Below, in pieces: positions 4,230-19,542 of a DNA stretch of 28,451 nucleotides; within the stretch, counting starts at the first letter, position 1, and each line of letters begins with the position of its first letter. A program made the translations under genes and the position numbers. Under the pieces are notes generated by a model. It was not told where the DNA came from. It ran no database searches and saw only the letters and a list, made by a program, of their open reading frames with translations. The DNA is from a virus. The stretch lies in IMG/VR virus record IMGVR_UViG_3300047323_000223, positions 1 to 28,451 of that record. One strand, 5' to 3'.

Positions 4230-4805
4230 TCACTGAGGTCTAGAGCTGACCACTGTAAATGGATTGTCGAATGGGTCCTTTCCTTGGAGCTCGATCCGTT
4301 GGTGCTCTAGGGACACGATCTTGTACTCATCTGAACTACCAGGAACATATTGCTTATTCATGTCAGGGAGTGAATATCCGCTCAACTTCTCCAGAAGCGG
4401 AATCGGCATCTCCAGATCGCCGCTTTTAAAGCTCGATGGTTCAGTGCGTAAGCCTGTCAATGTAAAGGTCAGGAACTCGTCGTCAGCCGTCCAGGTGCCT
4501 GAGCCTTTTGCGAGAACCACAGCAGAAAATGGCTTGTCGGCAGCGCCGCCTGAGAATTTGAGGGTTCCGTTCACGTTGTATCGCCCGTTACGGAAGTATT
4601 CAGTGATGCCGTTGAAGGCGACAGTCCCGCCTGGAACTGGATGTTGGTAGTTGCTTTCCCAGCGTCCGAGAAAGGCTGGGTTGTACTTCGGGCCTGATTC
4701 GTGAAACGCGGCGTATATCGACGCGAGACCTGAGAGCAGGGCAATGAATAGTCCGGCTTGGACATATCCCTTTCGTGCAAAAGCTTTGATCGTTTCGAAG
4801 TTCAT
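4230..4805 (-). CDS. Reverse-strand membrane-anchored moron protein, unknown function
   Basis: The 191-aa protein lies antisense to all neighbours between two head genes. The N-terminus is cytoplasmic and basic, followed by one transmembrane segment (residues about 15-34, QAGLFIALLSGLASIYAAF). The rest is probably periplasmic, with a beta-rich, lipocalin-like rhythm (FLGRWESNY, then GTWTADDEFLTFTLTGL). No catalytic motif is recognised. Base composition is more AT-rich than the flanking head genes. This is the pattern of a moron, a cargo gene expressed from the prophage, and a single-pass anchor with a periplasmic domain would suit superinfection exclusion or envelope modification. That function is inference. 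No terminator is seen in the 14 bases separating it from the convergent head gene. Confidence 0.75.
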   Translation of the reverse strand: MNFETIKAFARKGYVQAGLFIALLSGLASIYAAFHESGPKYNPAFLGRWESNYQHPVPGGTVAFNGITEYFRNGRYNVNGTLKFSGGAADKPFSAVVLAKGSGTWTADDEFLTFTLTGLRTEPSSFKSGDLEMPIPLLEKLSGYSLPDMNKQYVPGSSDEYKIVSLEHQRIELQGKDPFDNPFTVVSSRPQ

Positions 4806-14696: not shown

Positions 14697-15449
14697 ATGG
14701 CTTTGATTACGGACATCCAGAAGCTGGAGCCCGGCGGGGAAGTGCGTCTATTTGAAATCGACGGCACGGAGTACGGTGCGGATGTGCTGCGCTTCCATGC
14801 TCACGCGATTCCGCACACGCCGGCTGAGTTGCTGGCGTACGAGGGGGCGCCTGACGAACTGCCGGCGAAGTCGATCATTTGGCAGGGCAACGAATACGCT
14901 GCCTGGCCAGTGCAGATTGAAGGCATCGGCGCAGACAGCAGCGGCAGCGCTACACGACCGACGTTTATGGCTGGCAACGTCAACGGGCGAATCACCGCAC
15001 TGTGCCTTGCCTTCGATGATCTGCTGAAGTTTCAGCTGACCGTACGCGAGACGCTGGCGCAGTACCTGGACGCCGTGAACTTTCCTGAAGGCAATCCGAC
15101 CGCAGACCCGACACAAGAGGCACTGGAAATCTGGTTCATCGACCAGAAGACCGGTGAGGATGGCGAGGTCGTGCAGTGGGATCTGTCGTCACCCGGTGAG
15201 ATCGATAACCACGGGTTGCCCGGGCGCCAAATGACGACCTTCTGCCACTGGGCAATGACAGGCGGGTACCGCGGCCCTAACTGCAGCTACACGGGCGGCG
15301 CGATGTTCGATGACGACGACAATCCTACTGACGACCCCAGCAAGGACGAGTGCAAGGGCGGACTCAAGTCCTGCAAATTGCGCTTCGGCGAGAACAACCA
15401 ACTTCCCCACGGCGGGTTCCCCGCTGTTTCCCTGATCGCACGGAGTTGA
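14697..15449 (+). CDS. Minor tail protein L-like, iron-sulphur tail-tip protein
   Basis: The 250-aa protein matches lambda gpL. Four cysteines sit at residues 183, 196, 219 and 226 (TTFCHWAM, GPNCSYTG, KDECKGGLKSCKLRFG). The last two intervals (22 and 6 residues between cysteines) equal those I recall for the 4Fe-4S ligands of lambda gpL, so iron-sulphur binding is well supported. An N-terminal ITDIQKLEPGGEVRLFEID block is family-typical. The C-terminal GGFPAVSLIARS also fits, although the FPG motif is reduced to FPA. It forms the hub connecting the tube to gpJ. GAGGT precedes the ATG. Confidence 0.93.
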   Translation: MALITDIQKLEPGGEVRLFEIDGTEYGADVLRFHAHAIPHTPAELLAYEGAPDELPAKSIIWQGNEYAAWPVQIEGIGADSSGSATRPTFMAGNVNGRITALCLAFDDLLKFQLTVRETLAQYLDAVNFPEGNPTADPTQEALEIWFIDQKTGEDGEVVQWDLSSPGEIDNHGLPGRQMTTFCHWAMTGGYRGPNCSYTGGAMFDDDDNPTDDPSKDECKGGLKSCKLRFGENNQLPHGGFPAVSLIARS

Positions 15450-15451
15450 CC

Positions 15452-16216
15452 ATGCGCAAGCACATCTTGAGCGCGATCCAGGCTCACGCGGTTGCTGAGT
15501 ACCCGAAAGAGTGCTGCGGCCTGTTGCTGGGCATCGGTCGCAAGCAGCAGTACTACCCGTGTCGGAATATCTCTACCGAACCGAACGAAGAGTTTCGAAT
15601 TGATCCGGAGGAATATGCCGCGGCGGAGGATATTGGCGAAGTGATCGGCATTGTTCACTCGCATCCTGATGCTACGAGCCGGCCGTCACCGCGCGACCTC
15701 GCCATGTGCGAAGCGACCGCGATGCCGTGGCATATCCTCAGCTGGCCCGAGGGTGATTTGCGGACCGTGATGCCTACTGGCGATGTCCCTTTGCTGAAGC
15801 GTCCGTTCGTGCATGGCGCATGGGACTGCTGGCAAATCTGCGCCGACTGGTACAAGCGCGAGTGGGATCTTGAGTTCGAAGCCTTCAAGCGCGCTGATGG
15901 CTGGTGGGAAAGCACCGACAACACCAGCCTGTACGAGGCGAACTACGAGGCGGCCGGCTTCTATAAGGTCGACCAACCGCAACGTGGCGACATGATCGTG
16001 ATGGAAGTAGGGCGGACGGTTTACCCAAACCATGCCGGGATCTTCCTCGGCACCGATCCGGCATTACCAGGTGAAGACTCGGCCACCTTCGGTCCCGGGC
16101 CTTTTCTTCTGCATCACCTATACGGCCGCCCGAGCGAGATCATCGTCTTCGGCGGACCATGGCTTGACCGAACACGCCTGATCCTCAGGCACAAAGATGC
16201 ACAACCAGCCACATGA
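15452..16216 (+). CDS. Tail tip peptidase K-like (JAMM metallopeptidase + NlpC/P60)
   Basis: The 254-aa, two-domain protein corresponds to lambda gpK. The first half has a complete JAMM motif: Glu20, His69-Ser-His71 and, after seven residues, Ser79-x-x-Asp82 (HSHPDATSRPSPRD), a zinc peptidase signature. The second half is NlpC/P60-like, with Cys126 in WDCWQICADWY and His194 in NHAGIFLG. It is thought to cut peptidoglycan or process tail-tip proteins during assembly and infection. The open frame extends upstream into gpL, but the ATG at 15452 with GGAG seven bases before it gives the family start. In lambda gpI follows directly; here 2.7 kb of cargo intervenes. Confidence 0.93.
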   Translation: MRKHILSAIQAHAVAEYPKECCGLLLGIGRKQQYYPCRNISTEPNEEFRIDPEEYAAAEDIGEVIGIVHSHPDATSRPSPRDLAMCEATAMPWHILSWPEGDLRTVMPTGDVPLLKRPFVHGAWDCWQICADWYKREWDLEFEAFKRADGWWESTDNTSLYEANYEAAGFYKVDQPQRGDMIVMEVGRTVYPNHAGIFLGTDPALPGEDSATFGPGPFLLHHLYGRPSEIIVFGGPWLDRTRLILRHKDAQPAT

Positions 16217-16223
16217 TTGATAG

Positions 16224-16799
16224 CTATGCCGAAGTTCGTGGCAGGGTCGTCTGATCAATACTGCAAAGGAAGTTATGCAACCATGAGAGAAGAGTTCCGT
16301 GATCCCGTGCAGATTGAGCGCGGGAATAAATCGTTATCAGATATTGTGGCTCGTTTCCGCGCAGTGAAAATGTTCGATAGGCCCATTCCACATTTTGATG
16401 AAGTGCATCCTCAAGGCCTGGATGTATTGAGCAGTTCTCGCTCACCCACAACACCCACTGCTGATGAATAGCCTTTATTGCAGTCACTTCGCGCGAAAGC
16501 ACTTCATCGCGCGGCGTAAATTCGACGTAAGAGAAATATGCTCCATCTACGCCTGTAAGACAGCCTAATGTCATAAATGCTCTTCCCGGAGCGTTCATTG
16601 ACACAAGTAAATCCCTCAGGCCGTTCTCGGTTGTGGCTTCATGAATTTTGTCAATTAGTTCCGGATTTTCGACAAGGTCGATCCCGCCATTATTGCGATC
16701 GCCATTCACCGAGATCTCTGCTGATTTGAAAGGCCAAAGCTTGTAGCCCGAAGTGTCATCATCATCGTTCTTTATCGATGGTATTTTCTTTGCAGTCAC
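16224..16799 (-). CDS. Reverse-strand cargo protein, unknown function, GTG start
   Basis: The protein of 191 aa is read from GTG 16797-16799. GGAGG (complement of 16805-16809) lies five bases upstream, which makes this start better than a TTG at 16838. The N-terminus is lysine- and aspartate-rich (KKIPSIKNDDDDTSGYK), then come mixed helices (PELIDKIHEATTENGLRDLL) and a final aromatic, soluble domain with Trp/His/Cys (HQQWVLWVSENCSIHPG, then LLSWLHNFLC). No signal peptide or membrane span is seen. I do not recognise the family. It is the first gene of the island splitting gpK from gpI and its stop is 7 bases past the gpK stop on the other strand. Lysogenic conversion or anti-phage defence is possible but unproven. 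Confidence 0.65.
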   Translation of the reverse strand: MTAKKIPSIKNDDDDTSGYKLWPFKSAEISVNGDRNNGGIDLVENPELIDKIHEATTENGLRDLLVSMNAPGRAFMTLGCLTGVDGAYFSYVEFTPRDEVLSREVTAIKAIHQQWVLWVSENCSIHPGLEDALHQNVEWAYRTFSLRGNEPQYLITIYSRAQSARDHGTLLSWLHNFLCSIDQTTLPRTSA

Positions 16800-16839
16800 A
16801 TTGACCTCCAGGTCATAAACGCGCCGAAATTGGCGCAAT

Positions 16840-16872
16840 CCCAGTCCTTGGGCTTGCAGGCAAAGGACTGGG
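16840..16872. repeat. 10-bp inverted repeat between two reverse cargo genes
   Basis: CCCAGTCCTT and AAGGACTGGG are perfect arms around a 13-base loop. It lies after the 47-aa gene and before the GTG-start gene on the minus strand. There is no U-tract on either side, so a plain terminator is unlikely. It could be an attenuator, processing stem or regulator site. Confidence 0.6.
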
Positions 16873-16883
16873 GTAGTGTAAAT

Positions 16884-17027
16884 CTAGTCTTTAACTTTTT
16901 TCGATGTAGGTGGTGGAGGTGAAAAAAAATCATCAGGCAGTTTTTTCTTATTTTTAACGCTGTCGTTAAATTCTTCGTTTCCTGTGACTTTCTTCAGTTT
17001 TTCTGCGGTTTTCTGATTATTGCTCAT
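16884..17027 (-). CDS. Small 47-aa lysine-rich protein overlapping the DUF6338-like gene
   Basis: ATG (complement of 17025-17027) starts inside the end of the upstream DUF6338-like gene with an 11-base overlap, in a different frame. The product begins MSNNQKTAEKLKKVTG, has NEEFNDSVKNKKK, and finishes with a PPPP stretch and SKKVKD. It is highly charged, helical at the start and probably disordered at the end. The tight overlap, short length and proline run look like a small partner made in step with the membrane protein. It is below usual gene-calling size limits. No family is recognised. Confidence 0.55.
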   Translation of the reverse strand: MSNNQKTAEKLKKVTGNEEFNDSVKNKKKLPDDFFSPPPPTSKKVKD

Positions 17028-17619
17028 CTTTGTCTTCTTTAATGAATTCAATGAATTTTATATCTGAGATATTAATAATTATTGAGTCAATATTATTATT
17101 TGCGTGAGTCGTCTCATCATCCATCCAACGTGGGTCTCCAATCCATATTACTCCGATCGATATTTCGTTTGGGTAGGATTTTACAGAGCCGCACAGGCGC
17201 CTATCGTCCTTGAAGTTTACAATTACACTGCTTTCTGAGTGTTGCCTTAAAATGTGTATGAAGTCATCTGCAGATGCTTTCTTTGTTATCTTGTATTTTC
17301 TGGCTCTGTCGAAAATTATGTCTCGATTACTTGCGTAAGCTAGTGTGCAACCCATTATTATTGCAAGAAGCATTGAGTATATTGTTGTGTGCTCGGTCTT
17401 CCATGCTCCAAGGCTTACGAAGCCACCTAGATAATAAGTCAGTTTTTCAATTAGCCCAATTACTAAACTTATTATTGCTGTTAGTACTAGCGCTTGAAGC
17501 ACTCGCTCAAACTGAGTGGGCTTTGGTGCCGATGCGAACCAATAAAAGGTCATCATTGCAAGAAATCCAGGAAGCAATTGCTGTAAAACCGGAATCATTT
17601 TGTCTAAAGCTTCGTCCAT
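17017..17619 (-). CDS. DUF6338-like membrane protein, cargo
   Basis: The 200-aa protein begins MDEALDKMIPVLQQLLPGFL, which I associate with DUF6338 proteins found in prophages. There are three likely membrane spans: residues about 15-29 (LLPGFLAMMTFYWFASAP), 42-58 (LVLTAIISLVIGLI) and 80-98 (YSMLLAIIMGCTLAYA). A cytoplasmic C-terminal domain of about 100 residues follows, rich in charged and Ile/Asn residues (VIVNFKDDRRLCGSVKSYPN, an SH3/LSm-like strand pattern, then WIGDPRW). The DNA is clearly more AT-rich than the tail genes, a sign of separate origin. Function unknown. A membrane sensor with a small strand-rich domain beside a tiny basic partner would fit phage-exclusion cargo, but that is inference. 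Confidence 0.68.
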   Translation of the reverse strand: MDEALDKMIPVLQQLLPGFLAMMTFYWFASAPKPTQFERVLQALVLTAIISLVIGLIEKLTYYLGGFVSLGAWKTEHTTIYSMLLAIIMGCTLAYASNRDIIFDRARKYKITKKASADDFIHILRQHSESSVIVNFKDDRRLCGSVKSYPNEISIGVIWIGDPRWMDDETTHANNNIDSIIINISDIKFIEFIKEDKDEQ

Positions 17620-17705
17620 TGAAAGGGATTACCTTGTCCTAAAAATGCTGAAGTCAAAATGCTACTATCCGATGACGCCGTCCTGCCACTGGCATTCCAT
17701 CCACG

Positions 17706-17721
17706 CTGGATATATATCCAG
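17706..17721. promoter_or_regulatory. Perfect 16-bp palindrome CTGGATATATATCCAG, possible operator
   Basis: Fully self-complementary, in the intergenic region between the reverse DUF6338-like gene and the forward 58-aa gene, about 85 bases before each. A TATAGT box for the forward direction starts 11 bases downstream. Placement and symmetry suit a dimeric repressor or a phage-encoded regulator controlling divergent cargo. Confidence 0.5.
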
Positions 17722-17731
17722 TAATAGGCGT

Positions 17732-17737
17732 TATAGT
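17732..17737 (+). promoter_or_regulatory. Candidate -10 box TATAGT for the forward cargo gene
   Basis: Five of six matches to the sigma-70 -10 box. The -35 region would fall on the 16-bp palindrome and has no good match, suggesting control by a protein bound there. The 58-aa gene follows about 60 bases downstream. Confidence 0.35.
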
Positions 17738-17796
17738 GTTGATCTTTAGGGAAAATGGCAGTATCAGATGCAGGCATTCCCAACTTGAGGTCGCAC

Positions 17797-17973
17797 ATGA
17801 CTAAAGAAAATGAGCTCGTAATTACTAACCCACTACTGGGGATCCCGTTCAAGGAGGCGCCTGACGGAACTCCAATGGAAGGGCTGACGTTTAAGACGCG
17901 AGAGGAGATGCAGGCGTTTATTGATGCGCACTGGCCGGAACCTCCCGTTGAAATGGTTGCGGTTTCGAATTAA
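17797..17973 (+). CDS. Small 58-aa hypothetical protein
   Basis: The product begins MTKENELVITNPLLGIPF, contains GTPMEGLTFKTREEMQAFID and ends AVSN. It is acidic and soluble, with one clear helix near residues 35-45. An in-frame ATG at 17755 would add 14 residues and has AGGGA before it, but the ATG at 17797 with GAGGT eight bases upstream gives a more compact start. The gene is followed by a strong terminator at 18026, so it forms a single-gene transcription unit with the candidate promoter at 17732. No family recognised. Confidence 0.6.
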   Translation: MTKENELVITNPLLGIPFKEAPDGTPMEGLTFKTREEMQAFIDAHWPEPPVEMVAVSN

Positions 17974-18025
17974 ATGGGCGCTGCCAGTTAAGCGGTACCG
18001 TTTTGCATTTTCCAAGACTTTGAAG

Positions 18026-18052
18026 AAGCCCAGTCTAGCGCTGGGCTTTTTT
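18026..18052 (+). terminator. Rho-independent terminator after the 58-aa gene
   Basis: Stem AAGCCCAG with CTGGGCTT (8 bp, perfect), loop TCTAGCG, then six T. It closes the small cargo gene and separates it from the lipoprotein genes. Confidence 0.88.
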
Positions 18053-18099
18053 CTGGCCCCTAGTGCATCATTGCCCGCATTTCCACAGGAGTGACCTAT

Positions 18100-18441
18100 A
18101 TGAAATTGGTCGTAGGGGCTTTGGCTCTGTTGCTGCTTTCTGGCTGCACCGATAGCGGTCCAATTAAGGTCGGTCCGGACACCTACACGATTTCAACACG
18201 CGTTCCTTTCGGCGGCCCTGCTTCTGCGAAAGGGCAAGCCCTGAAAGAGGCAAACGTATTTTGTGAATCTCAGGGTCGGGAAATACTCCTCGACCACATG
18301 CAGGCGAGTGAGTGCGCCTTGCACGGTGGCTGCGGTGAGGCTGAGATTTATTTCTTCTGCCTGGCGAAAGGAGATCCGCAACTGAAGCGTCAGAAATATA
18401 GCCCTGATCCGACGCAGAAGATTGAGATCGATCAGCGCTGA
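18100..18441 (+). CDS. Cargo lipoprotein 1
   Basis: The product of 113 aa has a lipoprotein signal peptide: MKLVVGALALLLLSGC, with lipobox LLSGC and cleavage before Cys16. Residue +2 is Thr, so outer-membrane location is likely. The mature part has GPDTYTISTRVPFGG, then KGQALKEANVFCESQGREIL and two further Cys pairs (ECALHGGCGEAEIYFFC), suggesting disulphides in the periplasm. An upstream GTG at 18091 is in frame but sits on the GGAG ribosome site, so ATG 18100 is chosen. Similar small lipoproteins occur in Pseudomonas prophages, and some phage lipoproteins block receptors of competing phages; that role here is inference. Confidence 0.8.
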   Translation: MKLVVGALALLLLSGCTDSGPIKVGPDTYTISTRVPFGGPASAKGQALKEANVFCESQGREILLDHMQASECALHGGCGEAEIYFFCLAKGDPQLKRQKYSPDPTQKIEIDQR

Positions 18442-18464
18442 AGCTGCTTGGCAATAAAGGCGGC

Positions 18465-18473
18465 TGCTATAGT
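18465..18473 (+). promoter_or_regulatory. Candidate extended -10 promoter TGCTATAGT for lipoprotein 2
   Basis: TATAGT is five of six to consensus and is preceded by the TG of an extended -10. A TTGGCA sits 14 bases upstream of TATAGT, too close for a standard -35. The lipoprotein 2 ATG is 27 bases downstream with GAGGAAG. Confidence 0.4.
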
Positions 18474-18500
18474 CGCTCGCTTTCAGGACGAGGAAGAATC

Positions 18501-18848
18501 ATGCGGATTTTGATAGGCGCGATGGCGGTGACGCTGTTGGCGGGGTGCACTACACCTTCGGATTTGTTGAAAGGGTCTCCTGAACTGGCCGGCACATCTA
18601 ACAAAGACCCGAAGGCTTACGCGTTGTGCGTTTACCCATCTTGGCAGGACTATCGATCCAGCTCCGTCATGAGCGAAACCACGAGCGGTTATCGCATTGT
18701 GGCTGGCAGCGAAATGAATGGTCAGACGGATGATGTGCTGGACATCAAAAAGGCGACGATTGGCAGCGTTGTGAAGCTGTATCAGCGCGCCGCCTGGCAG
18801 CAGATGGGACGAGGAGAACTGAAAAGCTCGTTCAATCGATGTCTTTGA
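18501..18848 (+). CDS. Cargo lipoprotein 2
   Basis: The 115-aa protein has signal peptide MRILIGAMAVTLLAGC and lipobox LLAGC with Thr at +2, so outer-membrane sorting is expected. The mature part carries NKDPKAYALCVYPSWQDYRS, then TSGYRIVAG and a C-terminal VVKLYQRAAWQQMGRGE segment ending FNRCL. The two cysteines after the lipid Cys probably form a disulphide. The ribosome site is GAGGAAG. It follows lipoprotein 1 by 59 bases with a possible promoter of its own and is followed by a terminator at 18864. Small prophage lipoproteins of this type recur in Pseudomonas genomes; function is not established. Confidence 0.8.
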   Translation: MRILIGAMAVTLLAGCTTPSDLLKGSPELAGTSNKDPKAYALCVYPSWQDYRSSSVMSETTSGYRIVAGSEMNGQTDDVLDIKKATIGSVVKLYQRAAWQQMGRGELKSSFNRCL

Positions 18849-18863
18849 TTACGGAAACAGAAT

Positions 18864-18885
18864 GCCGCCTCCGGGCGGTTTTTTT
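18864..18885 (+). terminator. Terminator directly upstream of the gpI ribosome site
   Basis: Stem CCGCC/GGCGG with TCCG loop and seven T, followed at once by ATGTCTGGAGAAAGAGC and the gpI ATG. It ends the cargo island. It would also stop late transcription entering gpI unless antitermination operates. Confidence 0.78.
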
Positions 18886-18902
18886 ATGTCTGGAGAAAGA
18901 GC

Positions 18903-19484
18903 ATGGCAGCACAAATGATTGACTATCAACCTATGACCACCATCAAGCTTTACGGGCAGCTGCGGCAGTTTGGTCGGTCTTTCAGGCTTTCTGTTCGGTC
19001 GCCTGCGGAGGCCGTTAAAGCTCTTTGTATACAGATCCCAGGATTCGAGAAATTCATTTCGAACGCGAAGTCTCGCGGCATCGAATTCGCTGTCTTTCGG
19101 GGCTCAAAAAACCTAGAAGAAAAAGAGTTGAGTTTTGGTGGCTCTGGCGAAATCCGCATCGCGCCGGTCATTAGCGGGAGTAAGCGCGGCGGGCTCCTTC
19201 AAACCATCGTCGGCGCAGTACTAATCGTCGCGTCGTTTATTCCTGGGTTTCAGGCACTTCTTCCTGTTGGTATTGCTCTGGTTGCCGGCGGTGTAATCCA
19301 GATGCTGAGCCCTCAAGCACAAGGATTGAAAACCAGCGCCGCACCCGAGAACACCCCGGGTTATGCCTTCGGTAGCGCCAAGAACACCACGGCATCCGGC
19401 AACCCGGTTCCGCTCTGCTACGGAAAGCGCCGGGTGGGCGGGGCGATCATCAGTGCCGCGATTTACGCCGAAGATCAGATGTAG
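18903..19484 (+). CDS. Tail assembly protein I-like
   Basis: The 193-aa protein corresponds to lambda gpI, an assembly factor needed for the tip but generally not kept in the virion. It opens with an ubiquitin-like beta-grasp pattern (TIKLYGQLRQFGRSFRL, then AVKALCIQIPGFEKFI). Two hydrophobic stretches follow, near residues 100-118 and 122-136 (LLQTIVGAVLIVASFIPG, LLPVGIALVAGGVIQML). The C-terminus is a polar GNPVPLCYGKRRVGGAIISA motif that is the family signature. GGAGA precedes ATG 18903. Sitting after the cargo island, it restarts the lambda order K-(cargo)-I-J. Confidence 0.92.
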   Translation: MAAQMIDYQPMTTIKLYGQLRQFGRSFRLSVRSPAEAVKALCIQIPGFEKFISNAKSRGIEFAVFRGSKNLEEKELSFGGSGEIRIAPVISGSKRGGLLQTIVGAVLIVASFIPGFQALLPVGIALVAGGVIQMLSPQAQGLKTSAAPENTPGYAFGSAKNTTASGNPVPLCYGKRRVGGAIISAAIYAEDQM

Positions 19485-19504
19485 CCACATCACGACCAAC
19501 GCAG

Positions 19505-19525
19505 CCGCCCATGAGGCGGTTTTTT
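19505..19525 (+). terminator. Terminator-like hairpin directly upstream of gpJ
   Basis: Stem CCGCC/GGCGG, loop CATGA, then six T, then ATTGCCTGGAGAAAAGC and the gpJ ATG. Almost identical layout to those before gpI and the endolysin gene. Confidence 0.75.
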
Positions 19526-19542
19526 ATTGCCTGGAGAAAAGC

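What the first reader, a model, noticed from the sequence alone, without database searches (positions are those of the whole stretch)
16217..18902. 2.7-kb cargo island splitting gpK from gpI
In lambda-like tails K and I are adjacent. Here six small genes on both strands are inserted, with an AT-rich core, their own terminators, candidate promoters and a palindrome, and the tail order resumes cleanly at gpI. Such a site inside an essential operon is probably a moron hotspot that may hold anti-phage or envelope-modifying genes. The combination of an unknown soluble protein, a DUF6338-like membrane protein with a tiny partner, and two lipoproteins does not match a defence system I know.
Basis: partly seen in the sequence, partly recalled or inferred. 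Interest (0 to 1): 0.72.

Follow-up and report, generated by a model that had tools for sequence, protein, structure and literature searches.

The report
Prophage cargo dock with dedicated promoter
A stretch between two tail genes of a Pseudomonas virus is a swap-in, swap-out slot whose genes run against the tail genes and carry their own conserved on-switch, so a dormant virus can probably express them while its other genes are silent, most likely to fend off rival viruses.

Summary
The island is real and is a hotspot. In 94 complete K-I intervals from close relatives (gpK mostly 81-99% identical) the gap runs from -16 bp (empty, K touching I) to 4.65 kb and holds about 150 ORF families. The minus-strand genes (C-B-A here) sit behind a conserved promoter-like block, CCAGT-N20-TAGTAGC, with a CTG-N10-CAG dyad upstream. 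In 2.48 Mb of loci it occurs 155 times, all antisense to the tail operon. Eight whole Pseudomonas assemblies hold it 0-2 times. A promoter-only scan of viral contigs found 109 sites, at least 81 beside gpK. A hairpin leader with compensatory changes precedes the K-proximal gene. In relatives the slot often holds a small + ORF after gpK, at least 22 of them mimicking pieces of host-specificity protein J, convergent with a minus-strand gene of about 82 aa: like Tab/anti-Tab and Tai/Ati defence pairs. Relatives also carry HEPN/AbiU2, HSDR_N, TIR-like, NYN and toxin domains. In the window, A is a moron family, C a membrane protein with an Sm-like domain plus tiny partner B, E a mobile lipoprotein, F a quasi-core lipoprotein. 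Defence function of the window's own genes is inferred, not shown.

The parts
15452..16216 (+). gpK (JAB + NlpC/P60), left border of the dock
   Evidence: Pfam Prok-JAB 2.9e-20 and NLPC_P60 1.4e-7; PHROG 30
16224..16799 (-). Gene A, 191 aa, GTG start behind GGAGG; soluble protein of unknown fold; moron family (phrog_18578) found antisense in late regions of Mannheimia, Pasteurella and Acinetobacter phages
16800..16873 (-). Conserved leader of gene A: hairpin 1 (16840-16873), hairpin 2 (16821-16836), RBS-containing hairpin (16802-16815)
   Evidence: 225 copies in the loci, all on the minus strand; fold z = -3.7; covariation on 20 diverged copies
16884..17027 (-). Gene B, 47 aa, proline-rich tail (PPPP); overlaps the end of C; tiny partner seen next to DUF6338 in other loci too
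   Evidence: partners c46/c60 next to c6 in L018, L046, L067, L071
17017..17619 (-). Gene C, 200 aa, DUF6338: N-terminal membrane helices plus C-terminal Sm/LSm-like barrel
   Evidence: Pfam PF19865 1e-9; AF2 mean pLDDT 66; 57 PDB matches with E <= 1e-3, the 50 listed nearly all Sm/LSm chains or snRNP/spliceosome entries
17661..17721 (-). Promoter-like block of operon C-B-A: TAGTAGC (17661-17667), CCAGT (17688-17692), dyad CTGGATATATATCCAG (17706-17721)
   Evidence: exact match, only one in the window; 155 relatives, all minus strand
17797..17973 (+). Gene D, 58 aa, uncertain
   Evidence: ORF with GAGG upstream; no homologue in the loci
18100..18441 (+). Gene E, 113 aa lipoprotein; 88-100% identical in most of 21 viral loci with differing neighbours
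   Evidence: lipobox LLSGC
18501..18848 (+). Gene F, 115 aa lipoprotein (phrog_914); quasi-core late gene next to gpI
18864..18886 (+). Terminator-like stem-loop before gpI, conserved in relatives
18903..19484 (+). gpI, right border of the dock
   Evidence: Pfam Lambda_tail_I 1e-7; PHROG 32 3.5e-72

Best explanation
The K-I interval is a cargo dock of Pseudomonas siphoviruses. Its minus-strand operon C-B-A is a prophage-expressed moron set with its own conserved promoter (17661-17721), reading against the tail operon, with a hairpin leader in front of its last gene. In the lysogen, when late transcription is off, the operon is expressed. In the lytic cycle, late plus-strand transcription runs through the dock, opposes the antisense operon and makes the lipoproteins E and F. 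The cargo most likely hinders competing phages: in relatives the same slot and switch hold small proteins paired with J-mimic ORFs, and known defence domains. Shown: the hotspot, the antisense strand bias, the promoter-like block and its near-confinement to these docks, the leader and its covariation, and the J-mimics in relatives. Inferred: transcription in the lysogen, shut-off in the lytic cycle, and the anti-phage function of A, B and C.
For: Gap from -16 to 4654 bp next to nearly constant gpK. Promoter block: 155 of 155 unique copies antisense to the tail genes, spacing 20 in 133, 0.3 expected per spacing; median 33 nt to the first start codon where no leader intervenes; 0-2 copies per 5-7 Mb Pseudomonas assembly; promoter-only scan of 2.9 million viral contigs gives 109 sites, at least 81 beside gpK and more beside F/J or the tape measure gene. 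Same block in P. aeruginosa phages AUS531phi and vB_Pae_U2. Leader: 16 double-sided changes against 6.7 shuffled (0/500), slid versions 0-2. Cargo in relatives: HEPN_AbiU2, HSDR_N, NYN, YafO, SocA/Panacea, TIR-like effector. Gene A family is antisense in late regions of phages of three other genera. JBD26 Tab is a minus-strand moron in a late operon with its own promoter and blocks tail assembly (PMC10884400).
Against: No expression data. No defence match for any window gene, and A's structure model is poor (mean pLDDT 59, no PDB match with E <= 1e-3). The window lacks a supported J-mimic partner. TAGTAGC is not a consensus sigma-70 -10 box, so which factor reads this promoter is unknown. Some cargo in relatives is not defence-like (antirepressors, LysE).
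Confidence: 0.6

Rival explanations
1. The CTG-N10-CAG dyads are LexA (SOS) boxes: the minus operon is silent in the lysogen and switched on by DNA damage, so the cargo acts during induction (toxin, lysis timing, host takeover) rather than as standing defence.
For: CTG-N10-CAG sits at one of two fixed offsets 17 bp apart in nearly all of 133 promoters (87 at -54, 42 at -37); the window dyad CTGGATATATATCCAG is close to the AT-rich SOS consensus of E. coli (own knowledge).
Against: The centre in most copies is G+C-rich (CCAGGCAT, ACGAATCC), unlike known LexA boxes (own knowledge); with TAGTAGC as -10 the dyads centre near -41 and -58, a geometry more usual for activators.
Confidence: 0.2
2. The dock carries lysogenic-conversion genes for host fitness or surface change (membrane protein C, lipoproteins E and F), not anti-phage genes.
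For: C is a membrane protein, E and F are lipoproteins; other dock cargo includes a LysE exporter and an acetyltransferase domain.
Against: The most frequent minus-strand cargo in relatives is small proteins of about 82 aa, often convergent with J-mimics; several dock genes have defence or toxin domains; F does not follow the J C-terminus.
Confidence: 0.2
3. Neutral recombination scar: the gap between K and I merely tolerates insertions, and conserved blocks are homologous-recombination linkers without regulatory role.
For: Short conserved blocks alternate with variable genes, as in phage mosaic junctions; the E region is 95% identical to L007 over 0.5 kb and then diverges.
Against: Strict antisense strand bias (155/155), fixed 20-nt spacing, near-constant distance to the start codon and compensatory changes in the leader stem are not expected of linkers.
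Confidence: 0.06

Closest known systems
Tab / anti-Tab of P. aeruginosa phage JBD26 (PMC10884400)
   Same: Small minus-strand gene inside a late operon with its own promoter; convergent plus-strand small gene right after the preceding late gene; prophage-borne
   Different: Site is between terminase genes; no sequence similarity of Tab to the dock families (best profile E 0.025 in a two-sequence search); Tab's upstream DNA lacks the dock promoter; in this window the convergent partner is not supported
Tai / Ati (phi80 and relatives, PMC11364771)
   Same: Prophage defence aimed at the C-terminal region of central tail fibre J, with a cognate neutraliser; dock J-mimics copy parts of J 800-1160
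   Different: Not compared by sequence here; phi80 genes lie upstream of the packaging genes in a non-contiguous operon; the dock neutraliser would be a J decoy
P2/P4 defence hotspots (Rousset et al., PMC9122126)
   Same: Conserved flanks, variable content including defence genes
   Different: Here the dock splits the tail operon, cargo is antisense, and a shared promoter and leader mark it
DUF6338 family (PF19865)
   Same: Gene C is a member above Pfam's cut-off
   Different: Family not characterised; here linked with a tiny proline-tailed partner and predicted to end in an Sm/LSm-like barrel

Membership tests
Phage moron / accessory hotspot | Constant flanks with variable, dispensable content, including an empty allele | tested here: met
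   94 intervals, gap -16 to 4654 bp, 150 clusters
Phage moron / accessory hotspot | Promoter of its own in front of the inserted genes | tested here: met
   Conserved block at 17661-17721 minus, 155 relatives; met as sequence only, activity not tested
Phage moron / accessory hotspot | Expressed in the lysogen | not testable with these tools
   needs RNA-seq or 5' RACE
Tab-type tail assembly blocker | Sequence homology to Tab | tested here: not met
   Dock families against Tab: best E 0.025 in a two-sequence search
Tab-type tail assembly blocker | Convergent late-operon partner that neutralises it | tested here: inconclusive
   Small + ORF after K in 139 of 162 relatives, J-mimic in at least 22; not supported in the window; neutralisation not tested
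DUF6338 | Pfam gathering score | tested here: met
   38.7 bits against 26.5
Known anti-phage defence system | PADLOC model match | tested here: not met
   No match for A-F at E <= 1
Cor/Llp-type receptor-masking lipoprotein | Lipoprotein type matched to the receptor-binding end of J | tested here: not met
   F versus J C-terminus Mantel 0.09, p 0.09; versus gpI 0.42
LexA-regulated (SOS) promoter | LexA binding and recA dependence | not testable with these tools
   Only the CTG-N10-CAG spacing was seen

The most novel reading that the evidence does not exclude
Pseudomonas siphoviruses share a plug-in defence dock in the tail operon (K-I, also chaperone-TMP and I-J), marked by a promoter class of its own and a structured leader. 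Its minus-strand small proteins block the tail tip of rival phages by binding defined segments of J, and each is neutralised in the phage's own lytic cycle by a late-expressed miniature copy of that J segment acting as a decoy.
Probability: 0.33. Interest if true: 0.88.

Novelty: new variant of a known kind. Interest (0 to 1): 0.68.

Why it matters
A promoter and leader that occur almost only at these docks give a sequence handle for finding prophage cargo across Pseudomonas viruses, including many small unannotated genes that current defence libraries miss. The J-mimic partners would make target-mimicry self-immunity directly testable and would point to the exact tail segment each defence protein attacks. 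It also poses an open question: what reads a promoter with no sigma-70 consensus that appears about once per lysogen genome.

Tried and rejected
Receptor-masking by lipoprotein F: rejected, F follows gpI rather than the J C-terminus. Plus ORF 16283-16471 as a partner of gene A: open and with a conserved ATG in 9 homologues, but substitutions peak at A's third codon positions, i.e. its own second. Leader as a known RNA: no credible Rfam match. Leader covariation within close relatives: no compensatory change in the ten core pairs; it appeared only with diverged copies. Leader as a coding stretch: looked at by eye, variable positions do not favour third codon positions, not pursued. Tab homology of the dock families: none. 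Fold of gene A: model too poor, PDB matches meaningless; no PDB sequence relative. DUF6338 in papers: one hit, not opened. Literature searches found no description of the K-I dock or its promoter, within open-licence papers only. One DUF6338 scan of viral contigs found no relative, though relatives turned up through gpK.

Full report
Observation. The window is a 28,451-base IMG/VR virus record. L (14697-15449), K (15452-16216) and I (18903-19484) are identified by Pfam and PHROGs. Between K and I lie three minus-strand genes (A, B, C) and three plus-strand ones (D, E, F), with G+C down to 0.37. The sigma-70-like sites are at chance level, and the clear terminators lie before gpI and gpJ on the plus strand.

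Hotspot. 80 viral contigs with the closest gpK (90-99%) and further loci found through gene E or A gave 94 complete K-I intervals (the window included, a duplicate of it left out). The gap is -16 bp in L026 (K touches I), 424-467 bp in four that hold only the gpI-side lipoprotein, and up to 4654 bp. Simple ORF calling gave 419 ORFs in about 150 clusters; some single ones will be spurious. Cargo in relatives includes HEPN_AbiU2 (L096), HSDR_N (L084), a TIR-like effector match (L070), NYN (L100), YafO (L041) and SocA/Panacea (L056), and across the set also YhaV, zeta toxin, antirepressors and a LysE exporter. The sample is biased to close relatives of this gpK and contains a few near-duplicate contigs.

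Promoter block. Upstream of the minus-strand operons lies CCAGT-N20-TAGTAGC, preceded by either CTGtCCaGGCATCCAGCGTGGATGgAAtg (type I, 85) or GCCTGTACGAATC (type II, 38). There are 155 unique copies in 2.48 Mb, every one antisense to the tail genes; 133 have spacing 20; about 0.3 per spacing would be expected by chance. CTG-N10-CAG falls at one of two offsets 17 bp apart (87 at -54 and 42 at -37 in 133). The first start codon follows at a median of 33 nt (interquartile 30-36) unless the leader intervenes. In eight whole Pseudomonas assemblies the exact core occurs 0-2 times, while the control (pattern read backwards) occurs several times per genome. A promoter-only scan of viral contigs returned 109 sites: at least 81 have gpK as nearest tail gene on the left, most of the rest have F, J or the tape measure gene nearby.

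Leader. The gene next to K is preceded by a conserved element: 225 copies in the loci, all minus-strand, 144 distinct. 33 stretches of the genome collection hold its core exactly, 32 of them titled Pseudomonas. In close relatives the stem drifts on one arm without compensation. In diverged copies, including the independently found P. aeruginosa phage U2 copy, 4 of 11 pairs show double-sided change; 16 cells against 6.7 shuffled, 0 of 500, and 0-2 when slid. Most diverged copies were found with a hairpin search, so this support leans somewhat towards the structure.

Partner ORFs. In 139 of 162 distinct loci a small plus ORF starts near the end of gpK. Of 130 tested, 22 match gpJ at E < 0.01, against 0 reversed, 0 shuffled, 1 of 146 minus-slot proteins and 2 of 381 other interval ORFs. 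They copy different J segments: 800-860 (7, all with minus family M1), 1040-1095 (10, seven with M0), 1093-1132, 1118-1165 and 945-1005. In phage U2 a related pair sits between I and J, with the same promoter; in other contigs the leader and minus gene sit between tail chaperone and tape measure. The minus-slot families have no PADLOC match, and those in PHROGs are of unknown function. Published precedents: Tab/anti-Tab (PMC10884400), Tai/Ati, which targets the J C-terminus (PMC11364771), Tha/Ith (PMC11087260). That the mimics are decoys is inference.

Window genes. A has homologues antisense in late regions of Mannheimia, Pasteurella and Acinetobacter phages, in the last between the gpM side and the tape measure gene, so it is a travelling moron; its fold is unresolved. 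C is DUF6338; the model (mean pLDDT 66) has membrane-length helices and a C-terminal barrel with 57 PDB matches at E <= 1e-3, the listed ones nearly all Sm/LSm. B and other tiny proline-tailed ORFs accompany DUF6338 in four other loci. E is 88-100% identical in most of 21 viral loci with differing neighbours. F is near-universal and follows gpI.

Verdict. The dock, its switch and its leader are well supported as sequence features. Expression in the lysogen and anti-phage action of this window's cargo are the most likely reading but untested.

Noticed in passing
window 4230-4805 (-): Another antisense gene, 191 aa, with a possible N-terminal membrane helix by eye, inside the head operon between the Mu-F-like gene and the gene before the capsid gene; upstream it has GATAGTGGCAAAATGCC, similar to the dock's TAGTAGC-N4-TGCC. 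No Pfam or PHROG match.
   Followed up: partly
L112, L117, L118, L125, L134, L158, L194, L230, L250: Second dock between tail chaperone and tape measure gene with the same leader and minus-strand genes of about 80-160 aa.
   Followed up: partly
L327 4378-4799 (vB_Pae_U2): Third dock site, between gpI and gpJ, in a P. aeruginosa phage with the same promoter block and a partner/minus gene pair.
   Followed up: partly
window 18864-18886 and 19503-19526 (+): Similar terminator plus RBS modules before gpI and before gpJ (84% over about 40 bases), conserved in relatives; odd inside a late operon unless it is antiterminated.
   Followed up: no
L326 5239-7951 (Medea1): In phage Medea1 the K-I slot holds an HTH regulator, an Arc-type protein and a Rha antirepressor, i.e. 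regulatory rather than defence cargo.
   Followed up: no
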